Shown in pieces: positions 582 through 26,315 of a stretch of DNA of 26,918 nucleotides (positions are counted from its first letter, which is position 1; every line of letters begins with the position of its first letter). The stretch is taken from positions 1 to 26,918 of the IMG/VR virus record IMGVR_UViG_3300037264_000977; one strand, 5' to 3'. Origin of the DNA: a virus. Made by a program: the position numbers and the translations under genes. Under the pieces are notes generated by a model that did not search any database, was not told where the DNA came from, and saw nothing but the letters and a program-made list of their open reading frames with translations.

Positions 582-748
582 GCCCTGATCTCCTGTTTTG
601 CCCTGCGCCAAATGCGCGCAAAGCGGCTTTCAGTGCTACCAAACGCAACCACGCCAAGGTCGCGCTTCACGGTCCCGTCGCGGTTGAGCACGACCGCGCG
701 AAGCGTTGCCCTCTTGACGCCGGCACCGAGCTGGACGGTTCCGGTCAT
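566..748 (-). CDS. Small hypothetical protein (60 aa)
   Basis: This 60-residue basic protein starts MTGTVQLGAGVKRATLR. Its first half is probably beta-strand (ATLRAVVLNRDGTVKRDLGVV) and its end is Arg/Trp-rich and helical (RFARIWRRAKQEIRAWLRF). The start codon overlaps the stop of the preceding gene as ATGA, a typical translational-coupling arrangement. No family is recognised. It sits between two tail-tip genes in the same orientation, which supports it being real. The Arg/Trp-rich tail could touch nucleic acid or membrane, but nothing shows this directly. Confidence 0.55.
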   Translation of the reverse strand: MTGTVQLGAGVKRATLRAVVLNRDGTVKRDLGVVAFGSTESRFARIWRRAKQEIRAWLRF

Positions 749-1032
749 GCGTCTCTCACGAATAGGTTGGCCTCCATCGAGAGGACGTTGCCGTCATCTG
801 TGCCAACGACCACCGTGAACTTGTATTGCGTGTCGGCGACTCCGTCAGCCGCTCGGATTTGCACGCGCTTTCCGGAGAAGGACGGTCCCGAGAGCGTCAG
901 CCCGGCCGGCGCCGCAGTGAGCGATATGATCGACGAAAGCGCCTCGTCCTCCGCCATGTCAACCGTGAAGTCGAACGTGAAGACCCGGCTTTCAACCGGC
1001 TGCTTTTCAAGATAGGGGAGGTCGTAGCTCAT
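745..1032 (-). CDS. Phage fibre-tail adaptor-like protein
   Basis: The predicted protein has 95 residues starting MSYDLPYLEKQPVESRVF. Its pattern is an N-terminal YLEKQP-type segment, then DEALSSIISLTAAPAGLTLSG, then DTQYKFTVVVGTDDGNVLS and a final strand. This matches the small immunoglobulin-like proteins commonly annotated in phages as fibre-tail adaptors, which link a fibre to the tail. That family match is from memory. No strong Shine-Dalgarno is seen, so expression may depend on coupling to the giant gene, whose stop lies 21 nt upstream. The next gene overlaps its end by 4 nt. Confidence 0.55.
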   Translation of the reverse strand: MSYDLPYLEKQPVESRVFTFDFTVDMAEDEALSSIISLTAAPAGLTLSGPSFSGKRVQIRAADGVADTQYKFTVVVGTDDGNVLSMEANLFVRDA

Positions 1033-1053: not shown

Positions 1054-4000
1054 CTAGGTTGGCCCCAGTAGCTCGTCTCGCGCGCCCGAGCGCAGTGCGC
1101 GGGGGAGCAGGAGGAGCGTGCGCTGATTGAGCGGAAGCCCCGCGAGCGCGATCGACCGGCGGATGCTGCGGGCGTCGAGCATGAGCGGCGTGTCGGGGTA
1201 ACGCTCGTTCCAGCTCTGCGCTGCGGCGAACGCATCTTTCACGTCCTGATCCTTCCCGTCGCGGATGCCGCGCACGATGTTGTCGTAGACTTGCTGGCGC
1301 ACCTGATTGTAGAACGCCGCGTCCTGCTTCACGATCCGGTCGTGCGCGTATATCTCGGCCATCGACGCGCTCGAGAACCCGAGCGATTGCCAGAACGACT
1401 CCATGTGGCCCACGTCTGTGATCTTCCGGCCGGCCGGATCGGTGGCAACCCCGGTCGTCCAGTAGTTGTAGCCCTTGACCATGTTGCGTGCCGCGACGGG
1501 CAGCGCCTCGTTGGCTGCACGATTGTATTCACCTTGCGTCAGAGCACCCACGCCCTTCACTGCACCTTCGATCATCGCGCCGACCGGACCGAGCACATCC
1601 GAGAGGACTCGCTCGTAGGTGGCATCGGCCGCACCCAGTCGGGTGCCGGGGATGATGTCGCCGAGACCCACGCGAGAGGAGAACTGCATCCCGGTTAGGG
1701 AGTTGATCGCGCCGGTCATCAGGAGGCCGGACAGGTCCGCGCCAACGACGGCCTCGCTCGCATCCTTCAGCGCGTTGCGCATCGCGCGCCGCGTGTTGAA
1801 CTTGCTGCCAAAGAGCCGCTGCGAGATCACGTCGATGATGTCGAGTATATTTGACATGAAGGGCAGGCCCTCGGTGCCGGCGGCCAGCCACAGGCTCAGC
1901 AGCGCGAAGCTCGCCGCGCGCGGGCTCTGTTTGTAGAGGCCCGTAATCATCTCGACCATGTAGATCGGGAAGCTCTTGAACACGAACAGGAGCGAGCCCA
2001 AGTCGGAACGAGCGAGACCGGGGCGGTTCGCCTCGTCGTAGCGGAATTGAGTTTTGTAAACCACGTCTTTCGCAAACTCATAGACCGTCGGCGTCGGGAG
2101 CTTCCCGGTTCTCGAGAGGTCCTGACCCGTTTTAAACGCGGCGATGAACGTCGCCAGCCGGTTTATGTGCTCGCCGGCGCGGAAGGGCGCCATCCAGACT
2201 TTGATCGCATTCTGGACGCGCTTCGAGCGTGAGTAGATACTGCCTCGCGCCATGCCCATAATCTGAAAGAGTTCCGTGTCGAGGATCGTCCCATCGCGCG
2301 CGGCCATGATAAGCGCGTCGCGCAGGCCCGGCACAGCATCAACCTCGGGGATCGGGCTGCCGCGCTTATCCTCCAGCTTCGGCAGATTCGTGAGGACGTT
2401 GTAATTTGAAGCTGCGGCTTTCAATCCGCCGAATACGCGGGCGTAGGACTCTGCGGCATTGGAATACTGTGACAGGTAGGGCACCGTGGCGAGCGGGAGC
2501 TGCGAGAGCTGCACACCCATCGCGGCGAACGAGCCGCCGAGGAAGTGGAGGGACGCGAGCGAGCGAATCTTCGAGGACCAGTTCGACTTGTCGTGCGCGG
2601 GGTTCATGACGTAGCTCACCCGCTCCTCCGCGAGGTTGCGGTAGTGGCCCGCGAGCGGTCCGTCGCCAGCCCACACATCGCGCGCTGGATCGACAGCGAA
2701 TGTCGGGCGGCCGTTGGCGTCCTGTCCCACGCGAACCTTCCGGCCCTGCATCGCGTCCGCCAGCGCGGCGCTGAACTCGCTGTGCGCGACCTTGTTCGAG
2801 ATGCCGACCGCGAACTCCGCCAGAATGCGCTCGCCGTCGGTGCTGAAGCCCGGCACGTTTAAACGACGGAAGATTCGGTTCCGGCGCGTAGAGTCGGCCT
2901 CGATGGTGAACTTGGCCAGCCGCTCTCGCTCGGTTTGCGTGAGCTTGATCCCGAGCCGGTTCGCTGTGTCGAGGAAGTCGAGATAACTGATCCCGCCATC
3001 ATACTCGACCTTCTGCCGCGTGCCCCACTCGAACGTGACCTCGGGGAACTTCGGCCCGAGCGCTTTTTGCAAGTGGTCCAACGCATCCTGCGCCTGCTTT
3101 TGTGTCTGGAACTGCGTGTAGAACACGGTCACCGGGCCCTGATCGGTCTTGATGTAGCCGTGCGTCACGAAGTCGCCATAGCGCCGCTCGGGGATGTAGC
3201 CCGTGCGCACCAGCTCCTCGATCTGCGCACGGCGGCTCGTCTCCCACGTCTGGTAGGCGGTAGACTCCGCGCCGAGTGCCTGCCTGTAGACCGTCTGGTC
3301 CGCGATGAACTCCTCGCGAAGCATGTTGTTGACCATCTCGCCGGCCTGATCGAACATGCGACGTTGGTGCTCCGTCAACAGGCTGCGAATCCGGTTGTAT
3401 TCGGGCGACCCGACGGCGTAGTTTCCGACGGTGCGCTGCATGAGTGCGTTGCTGACTGCATCCCGGTCTGCCGTGCTCGTCGACAGCGGCAGCCACTCGC
3501 TCATGTTCTTCTCGACCGAGTCCGCGATCAGGCGCTTTTTGCGGTCGCTGTGCGCGAACAGCACGTTCGCCACGTTCGCCACGCCCTTGCTGCGCTCCGA
3601 AATCTTCAGGAGCGACATCAGGTTCTTCTCCACCCAGCGCATCGACGAGCCACTGGACGAGTCGCCAGCGTGTTTGAATATCTGGTCCCACGTCTGCTTC
3701 GGGGCCCCGGCTTCCTCCACGGCGGCGCTCACGCGATGGAGCATCTGCATGTGCTGCGCGCTGCCCTTCGTGTATTGGTCGTCCATGTTGTCGAGCAGCG
3801 CCTTCGAGTAATACAGCTCGAAACCGTCGGATTCCAGCATCGTCATGCCATCCTGCGGCAGCGGCAGCGTGGCGTCCAGTGCGGCGCGCGAGAACATCTT
3901 GCCCTGATTCTGGCTCAGGCGGATGTCGTCGATCGCGTTCTTGAAGTTGTAGCCGGCCTTGCGGAAGTTCTCGGGACTGACCGGCGCCTTCAGCGCGATG

Positions 4001-7000
4001 TCGATCCAGTTCCGCACGAATGCCTGCTCGCGGTCAGGGCGCAGCTCGAGGCGAGAGCGCCCGCGCGAAACGACCTCACCGAACAGGTCGATCGTTTCCT
4101 TGTCCTTGTTCACGACGCGTCGGAAGTATCCGCGCTCGAGCCCCATCTGTTTCGCTTGCTTGCGGGTCGCGTCCATGCGCGCCTTGATCGCCACCCACAC
4201 GGCCGCCTGCACCTGATGGATCGGCCAGCCGAGGCGGTTCGCGAGCGTCCGCGTCTCCTCCTCGACGAACGAGTATTGAGACTGCGAAATCTTGCCGTCC
4301 TTGTCGCCGTAGCCGAAGGCATGGGCCATCCACATATCAATCGTGCCGCCCTGCGTGTGCGCGCCGTAATTGAGCGGGTCGATCTCGATCATGAGGTTGA
4401 CGAACAGGTTGTTGCGCTTCCGCCCGCCAACGATCTCACCTTTCTTGTTCATCCGGTCCAGCCCCGTCATCACCAGCGCGGCGCTGCGCGACATCTCCTC
4501 CGGGAATACTCCGGACCTGATCGGCTGCCCTTCCTTGAACTGGTGCCATGCGGTCCACGCGTGCTTGAAGTTGAGCGGCACTGTCGTGCGCGGAGAGAAA
4601 ATAGACAGGAGCTTGGCGAACTTTGTCGCTTCCTCCCGGTTCCCGCCCATGAGGTCGAGAATCGCGCGGCTCGACTCGTCATGCCAGTATCGCCCGTATG
4701 GCTCGCCCTCGAACGCAAGGCCGCCGATGCGCCGGCGCAGCTTGCGCAAGTCGGTGCCGGTCTTGATCCAATCAGCCGCGCCGGGATACGTCGTGCTCGA
4801 CGCGCTCAGCAGGTCCTCGGTGCCGGCCTTGTTCATTGTGTCGATGCCGCTCTTGGCATAGTAGCCGGCGTCGATCGCGGTGAAGATATCCTCGTAGGTC
4901 TGGAAACCCTGACCGTCGAAGTAGTTGATGATCCTCGTGAGGATGGCCCTGATCTTTTGCCAGATGCTCTCGATCGCCCCGGTCGCGGTGAGTTGCCCGT
5001 TGCGCCAGAACTGGAACGCGTAGGCGCGCGCCTCGCGCGGATTGCCGGCGGCCTCGTCGGCGAGATTCGTGCCATTCTCCGTGTCGTAGCGCTTCAGGGC
5101 CTCCATCAGCTTGTTGAACTCTGCTGTGCCGGGCTCGAACGCGCGCCGGATGACACCGCGCTCGCCTTCGGCCAGCACATTAAGCTCGAGAAAGTGGAAT
5201 CCCTCGTGCGCAGCAGCAGACAGAATATCCTGCGCGTTGTAGGCAAGCCCGATGACGTTCTTGCCGCCTTCCGCGAGCGCCTGCGCGAAATACCCGGCAG
5301 AGCCGTCCATGACCTGAAGCCGAACCTCGAGGTTCCCCGGCGCGCCGAGGATCGTGTTGAGGTAGCCAAGGGCCGCCTTGCCCCGCTCGGCGTAGAGCTG
5401 CTGAACCATCTGGTGTGCGCCGCGTGACACTTTATTCGACTCGCGCAGGATGGCGTCGCGCATCATCGCCGGCAAGAGGTCGGCCTTCTGCGTCGCGTAT
5501 TGCCGATTTTGGGGCGGCAAGCCCTCGTTCGCCTTCCCGAAGTTGACCCACGCATTCTGGCCAGTCGTCTCGGTCAACAGCGCGGCGTTAGCCTTGTCGG
5601 AGAACATCTGCGCGTGCGCTCGGGTTGCGTTTAGCTCGCCATGCACCCCGAACTCGAAACCGGTCTTCGCGTGACCGTAGAGGTCATGAACCGCGCGGAA
5701 CTTGTAGTTTTGCTCGTTCGTAAGGAACGGGTGCTCGAGACTACTCGCAAACACAAACAGGTGCGAATTCTCGAACACGTCGCGGCGCATCTCCGCCGAA
5801 TTGGGGTAGGGGAACGCTTGCTGCACCGGTTCGATCTTAATGGTCTTCGCAACATGATCGTATTGGGCCTCGGTCTCGCGCGCCAGAGCCTCGTAGGCAG
5901 TGCTCACCTCGGGGTTGGTGCTGCGCACCTCCAGCAGATCGTAGGCTTCAGCAACGGCGCGGCCCAGTGACGGGTCAAACTGGATGTAGGGAATCACCCC
6001 GATTGGCGGAAGCCCAACGCTGCGGTTATATTCCTGCGCAGTGTCAAAGAGCGGATGCGACACGGGAATCTCGAGCCCGGTCCGAAGGTCGGTGATCGCG
6101 ATCTGTCCGGACGCGCGCGCAAGCTGAAGCGCTTGAGGCAGATTCGGAACCACAGTGCCGACGCTCAGCACCGACTCGCCATCGCTGCGATCAAACCAAG
6201 TGTGCAAGACGTTAGCCGGGTTCGAGAGCGAGGTGCCATTCAACGCCACGAATGAGCTGATGTCCTCCGGCGAGACGATGCCATCCTTCAAGTCCCGGCG
6301 TGGGATCAGGGGGAGCCCGACGACGTAACCGCTGCTGCCGCGTAGATCGCGCCCGGTCACGAGGTTCATCGTCGACCATTTCGTCGCCTTGTGCGCGTCG
6401 AGCGCACCCTGCGAATTCTGTTGCAAAGTTTCTGTAGTCGGCGCCTTCGACACGCGCGTCTGGACAAAGATGCGGAGCTGCCCGTTCGGATACAGGACCG
6501 CCTCGTAGCCGTTGGCCACGACTAGCTTCTGAAACTCTGCCACCGCGATACTGAAGTCCGGTCCGTAGCGATACTTGATGTCCTGCATCGCCTTGAGGAA
6601 CAGCGGGTCCTCGCGCAGGTTCGTTACCCTGTAGACCTTCGCGGCGTCGAGCGTTCCGACATACTTCTGCCCGCGTTGAACCTCGGGCTCGACGTAGTCT
6701 GTGCCTTCCACGACAGCAGATGTGTAGAGGCTGCCGAACTCGAGGTTTACCGCCTGATCCCGGCCCTTGATGCCCCGGCCCATCATCCTCGGGTCGAGCT
6801 GGCTGAGCCCCGGTCTGCCCCAGTGATTGAACGTGATCGTAGTCTGCGGCACAAGCGCGGCGCGTGACCGGTATGCCTGCATAGTGATGCCAGCAGCCTC
6901 AGCCTCTCTCGCGTATCGCTTGATGTTCTCCGGCGACATGACGCCGTCGGCCTGCTCACCACCTGAGAAGTAGCGCACTTCTGTCGGGAGATACTTCCAG

Positions 7001-9408
7001 CCGAGCGCCTTCGCCGCCATGATGCGGTGGTTACCTTCGTTCACCCATGCTTCGCCGTCCTGATTGACCATGATGAACGGAACGTAGTCACTGTCCCGTT
7101 CCGCCGAGAACGTCGGAAGCCGGCCGCGTTCCTTCATGATCCTGATAAGATTCTGAAGGGTATCCTGCCGCACATTCTGCTGCTCTCCAGCCAAACCGGG
7201 AATTTGCGCGAGCACGTCAACCGGAACGAGCACCTTCTGGTCACGGTAGTAGCCCGTCACCGGGCCAAAGCGCTTGGGCGCGCCAATCGCATTACGCCCA
7301 GTCTCCGCGTTCAGTTGCCGGTGACCTTGCAGCCATTCGCCGCCGGGATTATCCGTCCCCAGCTTCGGCTCCATCGCGGCCTTCGAGAACAGCATCCGGT
7401 TCGGCCCGAGATGCCGCTTCACGGCGTCGGCCAGCTCCGGAACGAACCGCTCGTCGGCCAGAAGCGCAGCACGCTGGTCTTCGGGCAGGCCCTTCACATA
7501 CTTGAGCGCTGCGTTGCGCGCTTCTGTATTCGAGACCGGCTGGCCAGTAGTAGTCAACTGCTCCAGAATCACGTCAATCGCAGCGGCGCGTGGAGTCAGG
7601 CGGGCGGAAAAGAGCGGCGCGTCGCGCGGGTCGGTGACGACCGTGTTGACCACGTCGCTGACCGTAGTCGTGAGGTAGTCGAGGATGGTCTGCTGGTCTA
7701 CCGGCGGCATCGTCCCCTTGAGGGCCGCCGCCGCGTTCTGCGCCAGCATTTGCTGGCCGATGGTCGTATCTGCGTCGGGCGCACTCGACTGCGCGACCGC
7801 TTCCCGCAGCATAGTCTTCAGCCGGCCAGAGAGCGCCTTCCCGCGACCGGTGCGCGCCAGATTCGGGTTCGCGAGCACAAGCGACTCGACGTGTTTGTCG
7901 GCCTCGGTGATTCTCTCGTTGCGGATGTCCTCGACAGTCACCGGCGTGACCGGCTTCACGCGCTCGCGCGGGGCCTCGGTCACCAGCTCGAGCGGACGCG
8001 GGGCGAGGGCGGGCGCAGCTTTCGCCTGCTCAGCCGTCAGCAGCAGGCCAGCCTTACGCCGAATCGCGGCGATGTCGCCAAAGCTCTCGTTCCGGATCGC
8101 TTGGAGGATTTCTGCCTCCGGTATCCCGGCCTTCGCCAGCGTCTCGAACTCGTAGGGCGAGAAGACCGGCACGGCCGGGTTCTGCGGGATGACGCGGCCG
8201 TCGACATCCAGCTCCACGGGGGCGGCATACGGCCGAGTCCTGACCGCCGGGACGCCTTCCCCGATCCTGCGCTCGGGCGCGGGCTGGGGCGCCGGGGGAA
8301 GCGGGGCCCGTCCATAAATTGACAGGAACGTCCCCTCTTGAATGGGTTCCTCCTCGGGCCGGGTGGTGTAGGCGCCGGGCTTTCCCGGAAACGCCACGGG
8401 AGGCAGGGTAGGACGCTCCGTGAGGGGCTGGAAGGGCACTTCCACGCCGGGGGCAGCCTCCGGGCCTCCGGGGGGCACCGGGGCCTCCGGCGGGGCTGCC
8501 GGGGGCGCTGGCGGGGCCGGCGCTACGCCGGGAGGCGGAGCGGGCGGAGCCTCCGGGGCCGTGCGGGGCCGGAAGGCGGCGGCAGTTCCCAGCGCGCCAA
8601 ACGTGGGGATCGCGCCGAGGGTCGTCGTAATCATGGTGTCCCGGAGCTGCTTCGTCTCCGGGATGTTGCCGGTGGCGAACGCGCCCTTCACCACGTCCTG
8701 CGCTGTCTCCGTGGCACCCTCGACCAGCGGGGAGCCAATCAGCGCAGCCGCCAACCGGAACGGAAGCGGCCCGACTTTCTTGCCGAGTAGGAGCGCAGCC
8801 GGGACCAACAGAGACGCGAAATCGAGCGCACCAGATATCGCGCCGCCTGCAATCGCGCGGCTTTCTGCATTCGTAGCGCCGGCCTCGCGGGCCATCTGGT
8901 AAGTTTCACCGATCTCGTTCGTGAAGCTCGTTGCCGCAGCGCCGCCGACCATACCGGGTAGGAACCGGCCGCCGGCGAGCTTCGAGGCCGCGCCGAGGAT
9001 CGTGCCAGTGCCGAGAGATGCTGCAAGGCTCGCCAGCAGATTGCCGGCGGAATAGCCGGTGATGTCGATGAATTTCTTGGGGTCCGCCAACGCCTCGTCG
9101 ACCGAGAACGGCTGTGGAAATTGACGCTGCTCAACTTCCGCTCTCTGGCGGACGCCGGCGCCGAACCCGCCGATAACCGGGGCGCCAGTCTGCGCGGCGG
9201 CCAGTTCGAGAGAACTGCCGGCAGCAGCCGTCAAGCCGGTGCGGCCCGCTCCGAAACCAGACGCGACTACGCCGGGCGGCTGAAGTGCAGCCGGGGCGAT
9301 GACCTTAGCGCCGGGAGGAAGCAGGAACGATCCGGCCGGAGTAAGTTCCGTTCCGGTATCGACTATTGGCTCGCCGGCTTCGGGCGGGACCAGAATGTCG
9401 TTAGCCAT
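1054..9408 (-). CDS. Giant polyvalent virion/ejection protein (2784 aa)
   Basis: One uninterrupted frame of 2784 residues. Visible in order: Gly/Ala-rich hydrophobic segments (about 105-270); a Pro/Ala linker (about 277-330); a ParB-like region with EGNHR at 791-795; an ADP-ribosyltransferase-like region (about 860-990) with an LDP...GRG start, Tyr/Glu-containing strands and a GYEAVLY element; an HDLYGH motif at 1241-1246 followed by ELNATRAHAQMFS and TTGQNAWVNFG; a zincin-like HEGFH at 1401-1405; a region (about 1556-1745) with GGTIDMWM, Asp at 1691; a PLxRFG-like motif PERRYG at 2073-2078; and hydrophobic stretches near 2467-2527. Such multi-domain proteins are known in phages and conjugative elements as polyvalent proteins, packaged and delivered with the DNA. 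It follows two likely ejection proteins and precedes fibre-attachment genes. Domain names rest on motif recognition only; catalytic activity is inferred. I saw no motif of N4-type virion RNA polymerase. Confidence 0.85.
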   Translation of the reverse strand: MANDILVPPEAGEPIVDTGTELTPAGSFLLPPGAKVIAPAALQPPGVVASGFGAGRTGLTAAAGSSLELAAAQTGAPVIGGFGAGVRQRAEVEQRQFPQPFSVDEALADPKKFIDITGYSAGNLLASLAASLGTGTILGAASKLAGGRFLPGMVGGAAATSFTNEIGETYQMAREAGATNAESRAIAGGAISGALDFASLLVPAALLLGKKVGPLPFRLAAALIGSPLVEGATETAQDVVKGAFATGNIPETKQLRDTMITTTLGAIPTFGALGTAAAFRPRTAPEAPPAPPPGVAPAPPAPPAAPPEAPVPPGGPEAAPGVEVPFQPLTERPTLPPVAFPGKPGAYTTRPEEEPIQEGTFLSIYGRAPLPPAPQPAPERRIGEGVPAVRTRPYAAPVELDVDGRVIPQNPAVPVFSPYEFETLAKAGIPEAEILQAIRNESFGDIAAIRRKAGLLLTAEQAKAAPALAPRPLELVTEAPRERVKPVTPVTVEDIRNERITEADKHVESLVLANPNLARTGRGKALSGRLKTMLREAVAQSSAPDADTTIGQQMLAQNAAAALKGTMPPVDQQTILDYLTTTVSDVVNTVVTDPRDAPLFSARLTPRAAAIDVILEQLTTTGQPVSNTEARNAALKYVKGLPEDQRAALLADERFVPELADAVKRHLGPNRMLFSKAAMEPKLGTDNPGGEWLQGHRQLNAETGRNAIGAPKRFGPVTGYYRDQKVLVPVDVLAQIPGLAGEQQNVRQDTLQNLIRIMKERGRLPTFSAERDSDYVPFIMVNQDGEAWVNEGNHRIMAAKALGWKYLPTEVRYFSGGEQADGVMSPENIKRYAREAEAAGITMQAYRSRAALVPQTTITFNHWGRPGLSQLDPRMMGRGIKGRDQAVNLEFGSLYTSAVVEGTDYVEPEVQRGQKYVGTLDAAKVYRVTNLREDPLFLKAMQDIKYRYGPDFSIAVAEFQKLVVANGYEAVLYPNGQLRIFVQTRVSKAPTTETLQQNSQGALDAHKATKWSTMNLVTGRDLRGSSGYVVGLPLIPRRDLKDGIVSPEDISSFVALNGTSLSNPANVLHTWFDRSDGESVLSVGTVVPNLPQALQLARASGQIAITDLRTGLEIPVSHPLFDTAQEYNRSVGLPPIGVIPYIQFDPSLGRAVAEAYDLLEVRSTNPEVSTAYEALARETEAQYDHVAKTIKIEPVQQAFPYPNSAEMRRDVFENSHLFVFASSLEHPFLTNEQNYKFRAVHDLYGHAKTGFEFGVHGELNATRAHAQMFSDKANAALLTETTGQNAWVNFGKANEGLPPQNRQYATQKADLLPAMMRDAILRESNKVSRGAHQMVQQLYAERGKAALGYLNTILGAPGNLEVRLQVMDGSAGYFAQALAEGGKNVIGLAYNAQDILSAAAHEGFHFLELNVLAEGERGVIRRAFEPGTAEFNKLMEALKRYDTENGTNLADEAAGNPREARAYAFQFWRNGQLTATGAIESIWQKIRAILTRIINYFDGQGFQTYEDIFTAIDAGYYAKSGIDTMNKAGTEDLLSASSTTYPGAADWIKTGTDLRKLRRRIGGLAFEGEPYGRYWHDESSRAILDLMGGNREEATKFAKLLSIFSPRTTVPLNFKHAWTAWHQFKEGQPIRSGVFPEEMSRSAALVMTGLDRMNKKGEIVGGRKRNNLFVNLMIEIDPLNYGAHTQGGTIDMWMAHAFGYGDKDGKISQSQYSFVEEETRTLANRLGWPIHQVQAAVWVAIKARMDATRKQAKQMGLERGYFRRVVNKDKETIDLFGEVVSRGRSRLELRPDREQAFVRNWIDIALKAPVSPENFRKAGYNFKNAIDDIRLSQNQGKMFSRAALDATLPLPQDGMTMLESDGFELYYSKALLDNMDDQYTKGSAQHMQMLHRVSAAVEEAGAPKQTWDQIFKHAGDSSSGSSMRWVEKNLMSLLKISERSKGVANVANVLFAHSDRKKRLIADSVEKNMSEWLPLSTSTADRDAVSNALMQRTVGNYAVGSPEYNRIRSLLTEHQRRMFDQAGEMVNNMLREEFIADQTVYRQALGAESTAYQTWETSRRAQIEELVRTGYIPERRYGDFVTHGYIKTDQGPVTVFYTQFQTQKQAQDALDHLQKALGPKFPEVTFEWGTRQKVEYDGGISYLDFLDTANRLGIKLTQTERERLAKFTIEADSTRRNRIFRRLNVPGFSTDGERILAEFAVGISNKVAHSEFSAALADAMQGRKVRVGQDANGRPTFAVDPARDVWAGDGPLAGHYRNLAEERVSYVMNPAHDKSNWSSKIRSLASLHFLGGSFAAMGVQLSQLPLATVPYLSQYSNAAESYARVFGGLKAAASNYNVLTNLPKLEDKRGSPIPEVDAVPGLRDALIMAARDGTILDTELFQIMGMARGSIYSRSKRVQNAIKVWMAPFRAGEHINRLATFIAAFKTGQDLSRTGKLPTPTVYEFAKDVVYKTQFRYDEANRPGLARSDLGSLLFVFKSFPIYMVEMITGLYKQSPRAASFALLSLWLAAGTEGLPFMSNILDIIDVISQRLFGSKFNTRRAMRNALKDASEAVVGADLSGLLMTGAINSLTGMQFSSRVGLGDIIPGTRLGAADATYERVLSDVLGPVGAMIEGAVKGVGALTQGEYNRAANEALPVAARNMVKGYNYWTTGVATDPAGRKITDVGHMESFWQSLGFSSASMAEIYAHDRIVKQDAAFYNQVRQQVYDNIVRGIRDGKDQDVKDAFAAAQSWNERYPDTPLMLDARSIRRSIALAGLPLNQRTLLLLPRALRSGARDELLGPT

Positions 9409-9411
9409 TGG

Positions 9412-10710
9412 CTACTTTATGGGCTTGTGTGAACCGTCTTTTTGGACTTCAAATTTCTGCCCGCCGATTTCATATTGCGTGCCGGGCGGGCCAACCTGCT
9501 GAACCGGGAGCTGGCGCGCTTGGCCGCCCCGGACCTGAATGACCTCCGAAGGCTGTCCGGGGAGCCCCGGAATAACGGACGTTGTCGGCTTCTCCGGCGT
9601 CCCGCCGCCAAACAGGATCGCGGCATCGGTTGGGCTGATTGCCTTTTTGCTCAGCAGATTGCCAACCAGTGTGTTCCGCGCGTTGATCGCCTGAGTTCTC
9701 GCGGCGGCCTCCGCAGCGGCAGGCGCGCCCTTGAGCAGTTCTGCGAGCGCCTTCGTCTGCGCCGCTTTGGTCCCCTCGCCTGCGATGATGGTCGCCTGCA
9801 AGTTCGCTAGGTTCCTCTCGGCAGCGACGCGTTCGCGGCGGGTGCGCGCTGACAGCACGCCCTGCTGCGCATCAAACAGCTTCTCCGCCACCTCCACTTG
9901 CTGAAGCTGCTCCGGCGTGGTGGCAATCGCGCGGGCCGTCCCGAATTCGCGGTCGCGCAAAGACGCCGACAGGGCTTGAGCTTTCTGCGCAGCCGTCACG
10001 CCGGGAATCGTGTTGACTGTGCCACGGGAAGTCTCGGGCGTGATCTCACGCATGGTGCCGCCGCGCTCGATCGTGTCGAGCATATCCTGCCTGACGTTCG
10101 TGTAGCTCGTGCTGCCGTCCGGATTCGTAATCGCCACGATGGGATCGGGCTGGGGCGCGACCACGGGGACGGGCACACTGGGAGCCGGAGCAGGGGTGGG
10201 CGCTGCCGCAGGGGCACGCGCCGGAGCCGTTTGGGTCGTGCGGCCAGTGAGCACGTCGCCGATCGTCTTGCCGACACCGGTGATATCCAAGCCCGAAAGA
10301 ATCTTCAGCGCGCGCTCGAGTCTATTCTCGGGAGTCGCACCGGGCGTCGTTGCAACGACCTGCTCGGCCGCGCCAGCGCCTTGCGAAAGTAACACGGTGG
10401 CCGGAAGGGCGCGCGCGAGCAGATTGGGAGCAGTGGCAGCAGCAGCCGCTACGCCGGGAGCGGGCGGAACCGCCCCGCCGGCAGCACGAGCCGCAGCAAG
10501 GGCAGGGCCGGGCCTCGCGAATTGCGAACCACGAAAGTCCGTAGTGCCACCACGGTAGCCGACCTCACCGGGACGGGGCGTGGGTGGAAGCGCGCCGGGG
10601 GTGCCGGGGGTGCCGGGAGCAGCAGGAGTCGCGCCGAGCCGGTTGAGCGGATCGCCGCCCGGCTGGAGAAGCGGCTCGAGAGAACTCCGGACAAACGGAT
10701 CAAGGGCCAT
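9412..10710 (-). CDS. Putative internal virion/ejection protein (432 aa)
   Basis: The protein has 432 residues starting MALDPFVRSSLEPLLQPGG, with a TAAGG Shine-Dalgarno about 7 nt before the start. The first 200 residues are Pro/Ala/Gly-rich and low in complexity. The middle is helical and charged (about 235-345: runs such as EQLQQVEVAEKLFDAQQGV and RRERVAAERNLANLQ). The end is Gly/Gln-rich. No enzyme motif is seen. It lies between a 325-aa helical protein and the 2784-aa giant protein, with a 3-nt gap to the latter. In podoviruses this place usually holds proteins ejected ahead of the DNA, so an internal virion or ejection role is inferred. Confidence 0.6.
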   Translation of the reverse strand: MALDPFVRSSLEPLLQPGGDPLNRLGATPAAPGTPGTPGALPPTPRPGEVGYRGGTTDFRGSQFARPGPALAAARAAGGAVPPAPGVAAAAATAPNLLARALPATVLLSQGAGAAEQVVATTPGATPENRLERALKILSGLDITGVGKTIGDVLTGRTTQTAPARAPAAAPTPAPAPSVPVPVVAPQPDPIVAITNPDGSTSYTNVRQDMLDTIERGGTMREITPETSRGTVNTIPGVTAAQKAQALSASLRDREFGTARAIATTPEQLQQVEVAEKLFDAQQGVLSARTRRERVAAERNLANLQATIIAGEGTKAAQTKALAELLKGAPAAAEAAARTQAINARNTLVGNLLSKKAISPTDAAILFGGGTPEKPTTSVIPGLPGQPSEVIQVRGGQARQLPVQQVGPPGTQYEIGGQKFEVQKDGSHKPIK

Positions 10711-10719
10711 GTGTGCGCC

Positions 10720-11697
10720 TTACTGGTTCGTGTTGTTGCTGATCTGCGCGAGCGAGTTCTGCGCAGCGGTTGCGGCCGACGCAATCGACGCGATCGCAGC
10801 GGCCGACTTGACCGCAGCCTCCACGCGCGCCTTCGTATTCTCGGTCGTGAGGTCAACGAAATTCTTCTGGTCCTGAAGGAACGACGCATTGGTCGACTTG
10901 CTCCAGTCCAGAGTCAGTGCCTCGCCGGCGACCAACGCCCGGTAGTAGTCCGAGGACGAGTCGTAGAGCTTGAGCCGCGCCGAAGTGACCGCCGAACCGT
11001 AGTCCACGGACTCTTTGACGATCCCGAGCCACGCGCGGAGGTAGTTGACCGTCGCGTCAATGGCGCCGAGGCGCAGCCTGATACCCTGCTCCACAGCGAA
11101 GCGGATGTTCTGAATCTCGATCTCGACCTGCTTGATCGCGACCTCGCGGGAATGCGTCGACACCTTCTGGCTCAACGCGTCTTGGATGCGGGCGGTCGCG
11201 TTGAACAGCCCGCCAGATGGCAGCGCGAACCCACGCCCGGCGAACTGCTCGATAACCTCGTCCGTCTGCCGCTGCGCGTCAAGCGCCTCGCGGGCCCTCG
11301 AGCGCTCCCATATCTGGTCCTCGACAGCCGCCGGGATGCCGGTGCCGCCGTTCCGGATCGTGTCGCATATCCAGTTGTCGATCGTGTCCGGAAGGCAATC
11401 GTCGATCTCGGGGAAGAACCGCTCAACCAGCGCCGTCAGGCGTGCGTCGAACTCCGGCCCGAGCTGGTTGAACAGCTCGTTGAAGCTCGACTTGAACTCG
11501 AGAGCCGCGTCTCCGTTGGGCGGGAGCGGCGGGCCATCAACGTCGGGCTGTTGGATCGCCGGCGGAGGGGAGAGCGTCACGATGCTGAGCGCGGCGGTCT
11601 GCGCCTCGTTAGCAAGGTCGATCGCCGCTTCGCCGTAGTCGTTCGCGAACGCGCGCGCCTCGTTGATGATTTCCTCGATGGTTGCTTCTGCGCTCAC
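10720..11697 (-). CDS. Putative internal virion/ejection protein (325 aa)
   Basis: The protein has 325 residues and starts at a GTG whose first bases overlap the stop of the upstream gene (GTGA). It is mostly helical: an acidic N-terminus, a Pro-rich linker (about residues 44-62), a region with two cysteines around 110-122 (DDCLPDTIDNWICDTIRNG), long amphipathic helices, and a C-terminal Ala/Ser helix (VKSAAAIASIASAATAAQNS). The C-terminal Ala/Ser/Ile repeat could pack in a helical bundle or against membrane. Similar proteins stand just before the large internal protein in podophage genomes, as recalled. I infer a role with the next two proteins in DNA ejection; no catalytic residues are recognised. 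Confidence 0.6.
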   Translation of the reverse strand: MSAEATIEEIINEARAFANDYGEAAIDLANEAQTAALSIVTLSPPPAIQQPDVDGPPLPPNGDAALEFKSSFNELFNQLGPEFDARLTALVERFFPEIDDCLPDTIDNWICDTIRNGGTGIPAAVEDQIWERSRAREALDAQRQTDEVIEQFAGRGFALPSGGLFNATARIQDALSQKVSTHSREVAIKQVEIEIQNIRFAVEQGIRLRLGAIDATVNYLRAWLGIVKESVDYGSAVTSARLKLYDSSSDYYRALVAGEALTLDWSKSTNASFLQDQKNFVDLTTENTKARVEAAVKSAAAIASIASAATAAQNSLAQISNNTNQ

Positions 11698-12524
11698 GAA
11701 ACTCTCCGTCCAAGCACGATCGGGAAAAACTCAATCTGGTCAAGCTCGAAGTCAGACCCATCGACGCCGATCAGGTCGTAGGCCCAATACCGCGATTTTA
11801 CACCTCGGCCGAGAGTTTCGCCAGCGCCGGCCAAAGACGCGGCCCGCTTCCGGAACATATACACGCGCGTCGCGCCGCCGTCGGTGATCGTCCGGATGTA
11901 GATCGGGCCGTCATTCCGGATGCCCATGTAGACCCGTGGAACGCGCTTGAAGAACGCGGTCCCGTTGTCGGTCTGCGGGAGGGCCATGAACCACGGGATT
12001 TCGTCGCCGGCATCGGTGTTCCCGTCGAGCTGGTAGATGCCGCTGCCCTTCGCGCCGTAGTAGCGCGATCCGATTCGGCACATCGAGTTGAAGTCGAAGT
12101 TGTCATATTGCCCGTGCGCGAGCGTGTCGGCGTTGGCCACCCAGCAGGTAAACTCCTCGTCCCCGATCAGGAGAACGATCGTGAACGCGAGCCCGTCAAC
12201 AAGCGTCACGGCAAAAGTCGCCGCGCTCTCCAGATTGTCAGAGATCGTCGCGCCGTCTACGAGGGCGATTTCGACGAGCTTCTGAAGGGTGAGCACTTCG
12301 TCAAACTCAACCGCCTCGGTCTCGCTGATGAAAAAGATAGCCGAATCCAGCAGCGACTCGTCGAACGTGGAGGCGTCCGTAATTGTCGCCGGGTAGGACG
12401 CAGAACCACCCTCAACGTCGTCAAACACCGTCTCGTCCGACACCGTATCGGTGAAGATCGCGGTATTCGGCAGCGCCTCGTTTCCGGTGAACTGGTCGGT
12501 AAGGGTTAGAGGATAAACAGCCAT
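11694..12524 (-). CDS. Phage structural protein with N-terminal tandem repeats (276 aa)
   Basis: The protein has 276 residues starting MAVYPLTLTDQF. Residues about 6-115 are five to six imperfect repeats of 19-22 residues with a pattern like (I/L)xDxxxFxExLxxxAxF, for example TITDASTFDESLLDSAIFF and LVDGATISDNLESAATFAV. The C-terminal half (about 125-276) is a compact beta-rich domain with SRYYGAKGSGIYQLDG and PRVYMGIRNDGPIYIRT. The ATG overlaps the upstream stop as TGATG. It follows an unrecognised 782-aa tail-region gene and precedes the ejection cassette. The acidic, beta-forming repeats suggest a tail or virion surface element; its exact role is unknown. Confidence 0.7.
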   Translation of the reverse strand: MAVYPLTLTDQFTGNEALPNTAIFTDTVSDETVFDDVEGGSASYPATITDASTFDESLLDSAIFFISETEAVEFDEVLTLQKLVEIALVDGATISDNLESAATFAVTLVDGLAFTIVLLIGDEEFTCWVANADTLAHGQYDNFDFNSMCRIGSRYYGAKGSGIYQLDGNTDAGDEIPWFMALPQTDNGTAFFKRVPRVYMGIRNDGPIYIRTITDGGATRVYMFRKRAASLAGAGETLGRGVKSRYWAYDLIGVDGSDFELDQIEFFPIVLGRRVS

Positions 12525-14872
12525 CAGGCTTTCCCCACAAAAGCAAGGTATTGAGTGGCCCCATCGCTAAACCCGCCGACAGTGACCACGACCGAGTCTA
12601 GCTGGTAAACCGCGTTGCCGAACTGATTCGTCGGCTCCAACTCTGGATCATCATAATACAAATTGCCATGCTGGGCAAACACCGGGGAGGCGACCTCGAC
12701 GATCATGGCGGGCGGGCTGGCGAAATTCCCGAACACGAACACGGTCAACGGCGTCGTCGGCATGAACCCGCCAGCGGTGGCCTCTGATGGAACTGGCGCG
12801 CCCACGGCGAGCGGCCCGACGTTTAGCTGGGCGGCGGCGTTCGGGCCGAAGGTTGTAGCCGGATTCAAGGAAGACTGAAACGCGCCCTGCGACTGGAAAA
12901 AGCTGCCCCCTGCCGCAGTCCACGGGCCGACATAGTTGCACGAGAGGTAGCCGGCCGGGAAAATGCCAGAGGCCGCATCGGCAACCTTATATCTAGTGCT
13001 GTATAGGCGCGCATAGCTTTGGCCGTCGTTGACTATCGACTGTGTGAAGTCGTTGCCGGTCCGAAATTGATTGTTCCTGTAGACGTGCAGCAGCGCCTCT
13101 CGCTCATTTAAAAACGGGACTACGGTAGTTCGCGCGCTACTGTTTTCTGACCCGGTAAAACCTCGGTTGTATACGAGCGCATAGGTCTCGTCGTAGTGCT
13201 CTATTACCGGGCAAAAAGTTATGAGGATGGGATCGAACGGAAACGTGGGCCGGTTCACCGTGTAGTAGCAGCTCGGGTCGAGCATGTAGTTCGTCGGGTT
13301 CTCAGTGAACTCTCCCGGAATAAGACGCGGAGGGACGAGTTCGTTGTGGTATATACCGGAAATAGGAGACTCCTGAACTGTAGTTGTCTCCGTGACCGTT
13401 TTTGAGCTTCGCTCAAACACAGTAGATATGTGAGGTGACGAGAACCCGGCCATGACGCGCGAATGCGCAGGGGTGAGGGTGTGCGAGCCACCGAACTTGA
13501 CGTTTCCGTCCGGGCTCACCTTAAACCCGCCGTCGCCCATGCCGATCGCCGGATTCGCGGGATTGGCAATCGTAAAATTGTTAATGCCCTGACATGAAAA
13601 CACGGAAGACCCATAAACCTCGGTGCAGAATCGTTGGGTTCCAAGAAACTGCACGAGAGTATTCGAGGTGCATGGAGTAAGCACTAACGGCTGATTGCTG
13701 CGTGTGAGTATCCAGCGTGTGACGATCTCTTGCTCGCCCACATAGTAGACATGAACCGGCGCGTCCTGACTGGCGAAAGGCATGTTGGCGATCTGAAACG
13801 CCGTCAAAAAATCGCTGTTGAACCAGTTGTTGCTCCCCGTCGGTATCCACACGGCGCTAAATTCGGGAAACGTGGCGATCTTATTGGACTCCTCCTCAGT
13901 GACCGCTGCCGCAGGAGTTCCATTGGGTTGCAGGGAGAAGCTAATTTTGAACCGGGAGCATAAATAATGCGCCGGCAGCGGAGATGAAGACGACGAAACG
14001 ACGACGTTCTGCGCACTGACGCCGGACGCACTGAACGCCCAGCCGCACCCGCTATACCACGGGAACCCGGACGAGTAGGCACTGGCCATTTCCGTCGACG
14101 ACAGTAATTTGAGCACGCCGGGCCGGCCGACCGAGAACGCCCAGTTGAGCCCGAGCGTCGTCTGGAAGCCTTCGAGGCTGGGCTGTTCTGCGACCTCCTC
14201 AGCGGTTGGAATATACTTCGTGATGGACCACGAATCACAACACTTGCCCGTGTTCACGATCGGGGCCGCAAAGACGCCGACCGAGGATATTTCTATCACC
14301 CAATAGCGGGGCGTCATGACTGCCGGGTTCCCCACGGGAACGTCGAACTTCAGGATGCCGTGCGTCTTGCCGAATCCAAAGCTGAATGGGGCGTTCTTGC
14401 CGGCGGCGTGATAGCACCCAACGGCGAGGCGCATCAATCCGGTAAACCTGCTGGCCGACACGCGAGAATTCGCCGCGACGCGGAGCTGACTTGGGACCTT
14501 GTAGCCGACCGTGCGATCCGCTGTCTCAGGCTCGGGACGTGGTTGGCCGTCGATCGGGTTGATCCGCTCAACGACACCGTCGTTATAGGCGGCGTCATAA
14601 TTCTGGCCGGAGCCATCGCGGGTGAGGAGAAACCCGAGCTTGTCCCTGCACTGCGCGCCGCCGATGACCGTGACGTAATGCTGATCGCCGTGAATGCGCG
14701 ACTCGGTCGTGTAGTCCGGCCCCACTTGATACCGCGTCAGGTGCGGAATCTCGTAGGGCGGCGACTCGCGAAACTCGTCCTCCAGCTTAGACACGCCAAG
14801 CGGGAGGTGCGCTCCCGCTACGTCCGGCTGTCCAAGCAGTTTTATGTGCTTAGGTGTCCGAGGATCACGCAT
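12524..14872 (-). CDS. Unrecognised large structural protein, candidate tail-tip or receptor-binding protein (782 aa)
   Basis: The protein has 782 residues starting MRDPRTPKHIKLLGQPDVAG. It is rich in aromatic, Ser, Thr, Asn and Pro residues, with little helix-forming sequence, as expected for a beta-rich virion protein. No enzyme motif, transmembrane segment or coiled coil stands out. The start overlaps the previous gene by 8 nt. By eye, the DNA from about 13000 to 13950 has more A/T and less third-position G/C than neighbouring genes. Such local drift is common in receptor-binding genes acquired or diversified separately. I do not recognise the family. Its position between nozzle-like and ejection genes fits a tail-associated or adsorption protein. 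Confidence 0.7.
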   Translation of the reverse strand: MRDPRTPKHIKLLGQPDVAGAHLPLGVSKLEDEFRESPPYEIPHLTRYQVGPDYTTESRIHGDQHYVTVIGGAQCRDKLGFLLTRDGSGQNYDAAYNDGVVERINPIDGQPRPEPETADRTVGYKVPSQLRVAANSRVSASRFTGLMRLAVGCYHAAGKNAPFSFGFGKTHGILKFDVPVGNPAVMTPRYWVIEISSVGVFAAPIVNTGKCCDSWSITKYIPTAEEVAEQPSLEGFQTTLGLNWAFSVGRPGVLKLLSSTEMASAYSSGFPWYSGCGWAFSASGVSAQNVVVSSSSSPLPAHYLCSRFKISFSLQPNGTPAAAVTEEESNKIATFPEFSAVWIPTGSNNWFNSDFLTAFQIANMPFASQDAPVHVYYVGEQEIVTRWILTRSNQPLVLTPCTSNTLVQFLGTQRFCTEVYGSSVFSCQGINNFTIANPANPAIGMGDGGFKVSPDGNVKFGGSHTLTPAHSRVMAGFSSPHISTVFERSSKTVTETTTVQESPISGIYHNELVPPRLIPGEFTENPTNYMLDPSCYYTVNRPTFPFDPILITFCPVIEHYDETYALVYNRGFTGSENSSARTTVVPFLNEREALLHVYRNNQFRTGNDFTQSIVNDGQSYARLYSTRYKVADAASGIFPAGYLSCNYVGPWTAAGGSFFQSQGAFQSSLNPATTFGPNAAAQLNVGPLAVGAPVPSEATAGGFMPTTPLTVFVFGNFASPPAMIVEVASPVFAQHGNLYYDDPELEPTNQFGNAVYQLDSVVVTVGGFSDGATQYLAFVGKA

Positions 14873-25483: not shown

Positions 25484-26200
25484 TCACTGTGTCAAGTCCT
25501 TGACGGCCTCGAGGAAGCCCCGAAGCACGCTCACCGGCACGGCGTAGCCCACGTTGTTAAGTTCTTGACGGTCGATCTTCACGATCGCCCGGTTGAGCCC
25601 CACGAGCACCCACTGCCCCTGCTGGTAGGCAAACAGCCCCCCGCCGCTGTTGCCGGTGGTCATCCACGCGCTGTGCTGGATGATGATCCCGTCCGAGCGC
25701 TGGATCAGCCCGGCGGTCAACCACTGCGTCTGTATCTGGCGCACCCGTGGAAACCCTACCGCGATCACGGTCTCGTCCCGCGCCGGGTCGTTCCCCAGCG
25801 TGGCGCACGGGCACATCAGCGCGGGCGAGTGCACGAGGGCCAAGTCGAACCCCGGCCCCGTGGCAGCGATCACCAGTGGGAACGTCCCCATCCCGGTAAC
25901 CACCTCGATCGTGTTCATGCCGGGCAGCTCGGCCTGTCGGACGGCGTGGTAGTTGGTCAGGGCGTAGCCGGGGCGGATCACCACGAGCGAGGCGCCGCCT
26001 GTCATGATGCCCTCGCTCGTGCGCTGGAACATCGGGAGCACGTAGTCCCGCGTTACGCTGAACTCGGCCCCTTGCGCATCGCGCGGCCAGAGGAACCACA
26101 CCGCGAGGAACCCTACCGCGAGCCACGTCCCGATGGCTGCCGCAGCGGCGAAGGCAGCGGCTATTGCACTGAATCGTCTGAACTTGTCGTTGGAATCCAT
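25484..26200 (-). CDS. Membrane-anchored trypsin-like serine protease (238 aa)
   Basis: The protein has 238 residues starting MDSNDKFRRF. The ATG at 26200 is chosen because a strong GGGAGGT (26204-26210) lies 3 nt upstream; an in-frame extension to 26275 would cross a palindrome. A basic N-terminus leads into one hydrophobic segment (about 10-38), an uncleaved anchor or signal sequence that would put the rest outside the cytoplasm. The remainder matches trypsin/HtrA-type proteases: catalytic His85 in LTNYHAV, Asp119 in GFDLALV, Ser185 in TTGNSGGGLF, with spacing typical of the family. No PDZ domain is present. It heads the packaging operon, 40 nt before the small terminase. It may act in the envelope; a maturation-protease role is less likely given the membrane anchor. 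Confidence 0.8.
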   Translation of the reverse strand: MDSNDKFRRFSAIAAAFAAAAAIGTWLAVGFLAVWFLWPRDAQGAEFSVTRDYVLPMFQRTSEGIMTGGASLVVIRPGYALTNYHAVRQAELPGMNTIEVVTGMGTFPLVIAATGPGFDLALVHSPALMCPCATLGNDPARDETVIAVGFPRVRQIQTQWLTAGLIQRSDGIIIQHSAWMTTGNSGGGLFAYQQGQWVLVGLNRAIVKIDRQELNNVGYAVPVSVLRGFLEAVKDLTQ

Positions 26201-26247
26201 GGGACCTCCCTTCCTACGGTAGACCGGTGCTGTCCACAAAAGTTCCC

Positions 26248-26266
26248 TGTCCACCATTGGTGGACA
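26248..26266. promoter_or_regulatory. Perfect palindrome upstream of the protease gene
   Basis: TGTCCACCA-T-TGGTGGACA has nine-base perfect arms around a single T. A further TGTCCAC half site lies at 26231-26237. It is 48 bp upstream of the chosen protease start, in the 5' leader, where a dimeric regulator could act as roadblock or the RNA could fold. Confidence 0.55.
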
Positions 26267-26315
26267 TCGCGACATAATGGACGGATGTGTCGCGAAAAGC
26301 CCGCAATCGCGACAC
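26267..26315. promoter_or_regulatory. Cluster of TCGCGACA sites, operator-like
   Basis: TCGCGACA occurs at 26267-26274 and again at 26307-26314. Its reverse complement lies at 26288-26295. The latter pair forms a nine-base inverted repeat, GTGTCGCGA (26287-26295) and TCGCGACAC (26307-26315), with 11 bases between. Three copies of an eight-base word within 49 bp is unlikely to be chance and looks like repeated binding sites for one regulator. Confidence 0.5.

What the first reader, a model, noticed from the sequence alone, without database searches (positions are those of the whole stretch)
1054..9408. A 2784-aa virion protein built as a chain of candidate effector domains
One intact frame fills a third of the window and carries at least six recognisable motif regions separated by linkers. 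The arrangement fits polyvalent proteins, known from phages and conjugative elements, thought to be delivered with the DNA to blunt host defence. Being encoded right after two ejection-type genes suggests it is injected as the leading protein. The particular combination of ParB-like, ART-like, HDLYGH, zincin, glycosylase-like and PLxRFG-like parts may be new.
Basis: partly seen in the sequence, partly recalled or inferred. Interest (0 to 1): 0.85.

Follow-up and report, generated by a model that had tools for sequence, protein, structure and literature searches.

The report
Phage giant protein with swappable cargo
A phage known only from environmental sequence encodes one very large protein made of a conserved tail-end module plus exchangeable enzyme-like domains, of the kind thought to be injected with viral DNA to manage the new host; one of its domains belongs to a widespread phage family that has no curated name and no solved relative.

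Summary
The ORF is real and intact (2784 aa, window 1054-9408) but lies on the minus strand. It is a polyvalent protein in the sense of Iyer et al. 2017. The C-terminal ~715 aa is the NCBIfam tail-700/PLxRFG module (E 4.5e-90), without the literal PLxRFG motif. Twelve IMG/VR relatives share a chassis (zincin, pre700 and tail-700), while the domains around it vary. The closest relative (87% identical) lacks exactly residues 677-849, the ParB-like domain, so this domain moves as a cassette. Other relatives carry Pfam ART-PolyVal or DUF3293 where this protein has DUF7178. The zincin (HEGFH plus Glu1459) and ParB parts are supported, the ART part moderately. The 'glycosylase' call failed a profile test. 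It models with high confidence and matches many phage proteins, but nothing in the PDB and no convincing Pfam or NCBIfam family. A short motif, [FY]S[RK]-A/G, recurs at module junctions and may be a processing site. Packaging and injection are inferred from context only. New variant of a known kind.

The parts
1054..9408 (-). Giant polyvalent-type protein, 2784 aa (P0001)
   Evidence: Intact ORF; homologues L001, L002, L131-L138, L158, L162
8539..9408 (-). Residues 1-290: Ala/Gly-rich hydrophobic N-terminal region
   Evidence: Weak PHROG 6958 'virion structural protein' hit to residues 35-276, E 0.004; recognisable in L131-L133; one hydrophobic segment at 189-207
8149..8571 (-). Residues 280-420: Pro-rich linker
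   Evidence: Up to 30% Pro per 60 residues
7381..7389 (-). Junction motif FSK (674-676) immediately before the cargo region
   Evidence: [FY]S[RK][AG] at a similar place in most relatives
6859..7380 (-). Residues 677-850: ParB/Srx-like domain, EGNHR (R795)
   Evidence: Exactly absent from L001 (residues 677-849); profile A4 to PDB ParB 6t1f E 4.6e-4; PF02195 weak in 4 of 8 members
6409..6861 (-). Residues 850-1000: ART-like domain (H862, Y895, E969)
   Evidence: Alignment A5; weak profile similarity to ART-PolyVal; related domain in other HDxxGH proteins
6034..6408 (-). Residues 1001-1125: 'x' domain, probably also found as stand-alone ~120-aa phage proteins
   Evidence: AlphaFold model; BFVD matches of 120-130 aa with target TM 0.77-0.79, attributed to this part by their length; occurs apart from HDxxGH in L029, L078, L125
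5374..6057 (-). Residues 1118-1345: HDxxGH domain (H1241, D1242, H1246, E1258, H1265, E1280)
   Evidence: phrog_3170 E 3.4e-22; at least 120 IMG/VR stretches; invariant residues; pLDDT 89.6 model; no PDB match
4798..5373 (-). Residues 1346-1537: zincin-like metallopeptidase domain HEGFH 1401-1405 + E1459
   Evidence: HExxH and downstream Glu invariant in 14 homologues
3883..4791 (-). Residues 1540-1842: DUF7178 domain (K1664, D1691)
   Evidence: PF23802 E 1.2e-8; alignment A7
3886..3894 (-). Junction motif FSR (1839-1841)
3802..3810 (-). Junction motif YSK (1867-1869), column conserved across the family at the start of the C-terminal chassis
3202..3843 (-). Residues 1856-2069: pre700 module
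   Evidence: Conserved in all 13 family members
1057..3201 (-). Residues 2070-2784: tail-700/PLxRFG C-terminal module
   Evidence: NF032893 E 4.5e-90, 303 bits against a cut-off of 100
9412..10710 (-). 432-aa Ala/Pro-rich protein just upstream, syntenic
   Evidence: Homologues upstream of the giant gene in L001 and L136; no family
10720..11697 (-). 325-aa helical protein upstream, syntenic in most relatives
   Evidence: Amidase_5 hit only E 0.058
11694..12524 (-). 276-aa virion structural protein
   Evidence: phrog_26502 E 2.8e-31
745..1032 (-). Gp77-like podophage fibre-tail adaptor, downstream
   Evidence: PF23148 E 3.2e-12

Best explanation
This is a polyvalent protein of a podovirus-like phage (relatives' contigs are mostly about 64 kb). 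A conserved chassis (zincin, pre700 and tail-700 at the C-terminus; a divergent hydrophobic N-terminus) carries exchangeable domains at two sites, before and after the zincin. Shown here: the architecture, the clean gain or loss of the ParB cassette, the replacement of DUF7178 by ART-PolyVal or other domains, conserved residues for the zincin and HDxxGH domains, and the position in the late gene cluster. Inferred: the C-terminal module packages the protein in the head; it leaves with the DNA; the zincin, or another protease, cuts the chain at [FY]S[RK]-A/G junctions; and the freed ParB-like, ART-like, HDxxGH and DUF7178 domains act on host or phage nucleic acids and proteins in the first minutes of infection, probably to blunt defence or reprogramme the host.
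For: Tail-700 family membership, 303 bits against a cut-off of 100. Profile link of the C-terminus to phrog_10089 'DarB-like antirestriction'. Late-gene neighbourhood: terminase, portal-type, major head protein, adaptor, head closure and fibre adaptor on the same strand. L001 is about 87% identical but lacks residues 677-849 precisely; L131-L133 also lack ParB, so it was most likely gained. L134-L138, L158 and L162 share only zincin + pre700 + tail-700 of the enzyme-and-chassis part. ART-PolyVal lies after the zincin in L135 and L136 and before it in L162; DUF3293 lies after it in L137. Zincin residues are invariant. HDxxGH co-occurs with ART-PolyVal in 14, DUF7178 in 6 and zincin in 3 same-ORF cases among 126 loci. 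The junction motif is the best-conserved short segment between divergent flanks (62% against 11% and 15% mean identity). Published: DarB is in P1 heads and protects DNA, and zincins are proposed to process polyvalent proteins (PMC5512222); an equally placed 4515-aa DarB-like protein was found in JC1 virions by mass spectrometry (PMC9144972).
Against: No virion proteomics exists for this phage. JC1's protein does not share the tail-700 module, so it is an analogue by position only. No enzymatic activity has been tested. The window's ART-like domain is not a significant Pfam ART and has E in place of the usual D. Zincin-driven cleavage at the junction motif is untested, and the statistics for the motif are partly circular because the sites were located by the motif itself.
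Confidence: 0.72

Rival explanations
1. It is mainly a large structural or ejection-channel protein; the enzyme-like domains are decayed or serve as binding and packing modules with no catalysis.
For: Helix-rich C-terminal region (low-confidence model) and a hydrophobic N-terminus; the ART-like domain has a substituted acidic residue; the podophage gene position is that of internal virion proteins.
Against: Catalytic-type residues of the zincin and of HDxxGH are invariant over large divergence; cassettes are swapped for other known enzyme-type domains, which a purely structural role does not need.
Confidence: 0.15
2. It is a late-expressed, non-packaged protein that acts in the producing cell (for example on lysis or superinfection).
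For: Packaging has not been measured for this family.
Against: Gene order (after the head and adaptor genes, before the fibre adaptor) and the published precedents for DarB, DdrB, N4 vRNAP and JC1 gp69 (PMC5512222, PMC9144972); relatives' proteins are annotated structural protein in several Pseudomonas phages.
Confidence: 0.08
3. A refinement compatible with the best explanation: it descends from the same ancestor as the N4 virion RNA polymerase, with tail-700 as a remote homologue of the N4 vRNAP C-terminal region but another payload in place of the polymerase.
For: N4 vRNAP (9pnt) was the top of 350,542 chains for the C-terminal model (E 0.064); the best local profile alignment pairs the FxYD...R...G...F...F...NP segment of both C-termini; same gene position in N4.
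Against: The model is poor (pLDDT 58, pTM 0.35), TM-score 0.09, hhalign probability 0.3% and P 0.18; none of this is significant.
Confidence: 0.3

Closest known systems
Polyvalent proteins (Iyer et al. 2017, PMC5512222), phage type
   Same: Several unrelated enzyme-like domains in one chain, zincin, ParB-like and ART-like domains, late-gene context
   Different: This exact domain set was not found elsewhere, and the HDxxGH domain matches no Pfam polyvalent (LPD or other) family convincingly
tail-700 / PLxRFG domain-containing proteins (NF032893), e.g. Pseudomonas phage F116 gp60 and Klebsiella phages LASTA and ZX1
   Same: C-terminal ~700-aa module, similar genome size (~60-65 kb), junction FSR motif, ART-PolyVal in F116p60
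   Different: About 26% identity or less over the C-terminus only; this family ends GLPLNQRT rather than PLxRFG; upstream domains differ
DarB / DdrB antirestriction proteins of phage P1 and DarB-like proteins of Bcep22-type phages (JC1 gp69)
   Same: Giant late-gene proteins; DarB and JC1 gp69 are in virions (literature); DdrB has a ParB-like and a zincin domain
   Different: No methylase or helicase match in this protein; JC1 gp69 does not match tail-700
N4 virion RNA polymerase
   Same: Giant protein, same place in the gene order, contains an HExxH motif
   Different: No polymerase domain; C-terminal similarity not significant
Aromatic amino acid hydroxylases (PF00351)
   Same: H-[DE]-x-x-G-H motif with a later Glu, the two-His-one-carboxylate pattern; human PAH is the top PDB fold hit (E 0.098)
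   Different: Profile match limited to 15 columns (3.7%), TM-score 0.15; not homologous on this evidence

Membership tests
Polyvalent proteins | Two or more domains of disparate type in one chain | tested here: met
   ParB-like, zincin, HDxxGH, DUF7178 and tail-700 in one ORF
Polyvalent proteins | Located among phage late genes or transfer genes | tested here: met
   Terminase to fibre adaptor on the same strand
Polyvalent proteins | Delivered into the host with the DNA | not testable with these tools
   Needs virion proteomics and ejection assays
tail-700 / PLxRFG (NF032893) | Score above the curated cut-off | tested here: met
   303 bits against 100
tail-700 / PLxRFG (NF032893) | C-terminal PLxRFG motif (from the family name) | tested here: not met
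   C-terminus reads GLPLNQRTLLLLPRALR
Zincin metallopeptidase (MPTase) | HExxH plus a downstream Glu ligand | tested here: met
   H1401, E1402, H1405 and E1459 invariant in 14 sequences
ParB/Srx superfamily | Profile similarity to a known ParB and the conserved active-site Arg | tested here: met
   6t1f E 4.6e-4; EGNHR R795
ART-PolyVal / Tox-ART-HYD2 | H-Y-D active site and a family match | tested here: inconclusive
   H862 and Y895 present, E969 for D; no Pfam hit; hhalign 6.5%
HhH-GPD DNA glycosylase | Profile similarity including helix-hairpin-helix | tested here: not met
   hhalign 0.4%; C-terminal model unreliable
DarB-like antirestriction | Adenine methylase fused to an SF2 helicase | tested here: not met
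   No such Pfam or NCBIfam hit
Aromatic amino acid hydroxylase | Fold and profile similarity beyond the HDxxGH motif | tested here: not met
N4 virion RNA polymerase | C-terminal domain homology | tested here: inconclusive
   Top fold hit from a low-confidence model; profile P 0.18

The most novel reading that the evidence does not exclude
The HDxxGH domain is a previously undescribed phage metalloenzyme family with a fold not represented in the PDB. It is spread both as stand-alone genes and as cargo in giant proteins delivered with viral DNA, and in this phage lineage the cargo is cut free at a conserved [FY]S[RK]-A/G junction.
Probability: 0.35. Interest if true: 0.78.

Novelty: new variant of a known kind. 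Interest (0 to 1): 0.57.

Why it matters
Polyvalent proteins were defined by computation and few of their domains have been tested. Here a close pair of phages differs by one clean domain, and a family shows a fixed chassis with exchangeable cargo, so cargo function can be tested by swaps in a constant background. The HDxxGH domain is common, strongly conserved, confidently modelled and has no curated name, which makes it a good target for finding a new phage enzyme.

Tried and rejected
HDxxGH as an aromatic amino acid hydroxylase: the motif and a later Glu fit, and PAH is the top PDB fold hit, but the profile match is 15 columns and the TM-score is 0.15.

HDxxGH as a MATCAP (PF08014) peptidase: two of 38 members matched, the better at E 3.6e-4, but hhalign gave nothing (the MATCAP alignment held only 3 sequences).

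DUF7178 as an HhH-GPD glycosylase: no profile support; the conserved Lys/Asp pair remains only suggestive.

The phage's trypsin-like protease (25484-26275) as the enzyme that cuts FS[RK]-A junctions: found in only 3 of the 20 records searched, although motif-bearing relatives of about 64 kb (L134, L135, F116, 8P) have no match. It also has a predicted membrane segment.

FSR motif as a general polyvalent signal: not enriched in HDxxGH giants outside this chassis.

JC1 gp69 as direct proof of packaging: it does not share tail-700.

tail-700 against N4 vRNAP: suggestive, not significant.

Modelling residues 1541-2740 gave low confidence, so no structural claim rests on it. A search of the window record for LPD38 rang in no control genome and says nothing. 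Two coordinate slips gave errors, one alignment reference was out of frame, and one hhalign run used the wrong mode (repeated in 83).

Full report
1. The observation. The window is a 26,918-base IMG/VR virus record. An intact 2784-aa frame lies at 1054-9408 on the minus strand. The next genes upstream on that strand encode 432, 325, 276 and 782 aa; a 95-aa Gp77-type fibre-tail adaptor follows it. Terminase, portal-type, major head, adaptor and head-closure genes lie further upstream on the same strand. It is therefore a late-cluster gene of a podovirus-like phage. Relatives' contigs are 64,258, 64,256, 64,251, 63,811 and 66,528 bases, so the window is probably less than half a genome.

2. Anatomy. 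NCBIfam places residues 2070-2744 in tail-700 (PLxRFG domain-containing protein) at E 4.5e-90, three times the curated cut-off in bits. Pfam gives only DUF7178 (1572-1743, E 1.2e-8). PHROGs links the C-terminus to several unknown giant families and one DarB-like family, and residues 1122-1288 to phrog_3170 of unknown function. Profiles built here from relatives give ParB-like 675-862, ART-like 842-999, x 1001-1125, HDxxGH 1118-1330, zincin 1346-1537, DUF7178 1532-1842, pre700 1856-2068 and tail-700 2070-2780.

3. Modularity, the strongest result. The nearest relative, L001, is 87% identical over residues 848-2784 and 82% over 1-681, yet lacks exactly residues 677-849, the ParB-like domain. L131, L132 and L133 have the same order ART-x-HDxxGH-zincin-DUF7178 (with tail-700, cut by the contig end in L131), also without ParB, so the cassette was most likely gained by the window's lineage. 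L134-L138, L158 and L162 share only zincin, pre700 and tail-700 of these. Pfam finds ART-PolyVal between zincin and pre700 in L135 and L136, before the zincin in L162, and DUF3293 after the zincin in L137. ParB-like domains like this one occur as small proteins in other phages. In L148-L152 they are fused directly to ART-PolyVal, the same ParB-ART order as here, and in L148 the next gene carries DUF7178.

4. The HDxxGH domain. In 92 non-redundant copies H1241, D1242, G1245 and H1246 are invariant by design of the search. G1257, E1258, H1265 and E1280, which were not in the pattern, are invariant too, and Q1284, N1285, Q1307, K1308 and P1313 are over 90% conserved where present. The copies lie in ORFs from about 210 aa up to 4052 aa. 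AlphaFold2 models residues 1000-1345 at pLDDT 89.6 and pTM 0.84. Foldseek finds many phage proteins in BFVD (39 at E up to 1e-3, mostly uncharacterised) but nothing in the PDB below 0.098. The best PDB hit, human phenylalanine hydroxylase, has a similar HDxxGH motif but TM-score 0.15. No Pfam family covers it convincingly: of 38 members scanned, the only notable hit was MATCAP in two members, best E 3.6e-4, which profile comparison did not support. No NCBIfam model matched it in the proteins tried. Invariant His, Asp and Glu residues suggest a metal site, but this is inference.

5. Other domains. The zincin has HExxH and a downstream Glu invariant in 14 proteins down to about 22% identity. The ParB-like profile reaches a solved ParB at E 4.6e-4. 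The ART-like domain has His and Tyr in the expected order but Glu for Asp, and is not a significant ART-PolyVal match. DUF7178 has an invariant Lys and Asp, and one remote homologue is annotated N-glycosylase/DNA lyase, but hhalign against Nth/MutY-type proteins gave 0.4%. I therefore do not call it a glycosylase.

6. Junction motif. [FY]S[RK] followed by a small residue appears at the start of the cargo region and just before pre700. It occurs in all 13 family members near pre700 (1.5 expected among the 15 proteins tested), and in F116p60 and 8P just beyond the tested interval. In 11 family proteins the tetrapeptide class occurs 28 times against 0-6 for permuted versions. Around the pre700 copy the six-residue site averages 62% identity against 11% upstream and 15% downstream. 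Cautions: the sites were located by the motif, the copies before pre700 are homologous by descent, and the motif is not enriched in other giant proteins. Iyer et al. (PMC5512222) proposed that zincins split polyvalent proteins into working units; these junctions are candidate sites. The phage's trypsin-like protease is an unlikely general cutter because most motif-bearing relatives lack a match to it.

7. Mechanism. The most likely account is a packaged, ejected carrier whose C-terminal module is constant and whose cargo is exchanged under selection by host defences. The constant module, the exchange and the conserved residues are shown. Packaging, ejection, cleavage and cargo activity are inferred. 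For packaging, published precedents are P1 DarB and DdrB and N4 vRNAP (PMC5512222), and the equally placed DarB-like gp69 of the 61-kb podovirus JC1, found in virions by mass spectrometry (PMC9144972). JC1 gp69 does not share tail-700, so it is a positional analogue only.

8. Known or new. As a class this is a phage polyvalent protein with a tail-700 module. The domain combination was not found in 50,697 phage records, and GTDB genome contigs gave two distant loci. The clean ParB cassette, the chassis-and-cargo picture and the delineation of HDxxGH are new here as far as the held literature goes; a search for HDxxGH, DUF7178, PF23802 and tail-700 found no paper.

Noticed in passing
window 25484-26275 (-): Trypsin-like serine protease (PF13365 E 9.8e-14) with an N-terminal hydrophobic segment, encoded beside the terminase region; also in L001's and L132's contigs but not detected in the other relatives.
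   Followed up: partly
window 13001-14000, inside the 782-aa gene 12524-14872 (-): GC drops to 0.536 against about 0.63 for the window; the 782-aa product has no PHROG, Pfam or NCBIfam match, possibly an acquired tail or spike part.
   Followed up: no
L148-L152: Small phage proteins fuse the same ParB-like domain directly to ART-PolyVal; in L148 the next gene carries DUF7178.
   Followed up: partly
L005 (Synechococcus phage MinM2) 3391-11802: 2803-aa giant protein annotated RelA/SpoT carries HDxxGH and LPD38 and lies after two hypothetical genes, as in the window.
   Followed up: partly
L006 (Rhodococcus phage E3 gp205) and many Mycobacterium smegmatis phages (e.g. L007): HDxxGH domain in a structural protein of E3 together with DUF7178, and in hypothetical proteins of about 187 mycobacteriophage records (433 aa in Cane17).
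   Followed up: partly
window 2935-5427 (+): An 830-aa open frame antisense to the giant gene; most likely a by-product of high-GC codon use.
   Followed up: no
window residues 1001-1125 (6034-6408, -): The 'x' domain appears to match many stand-alone ~120-aa phage proteins by fold (BFVD), another unnamed and widespread module.
   Followed up: partly
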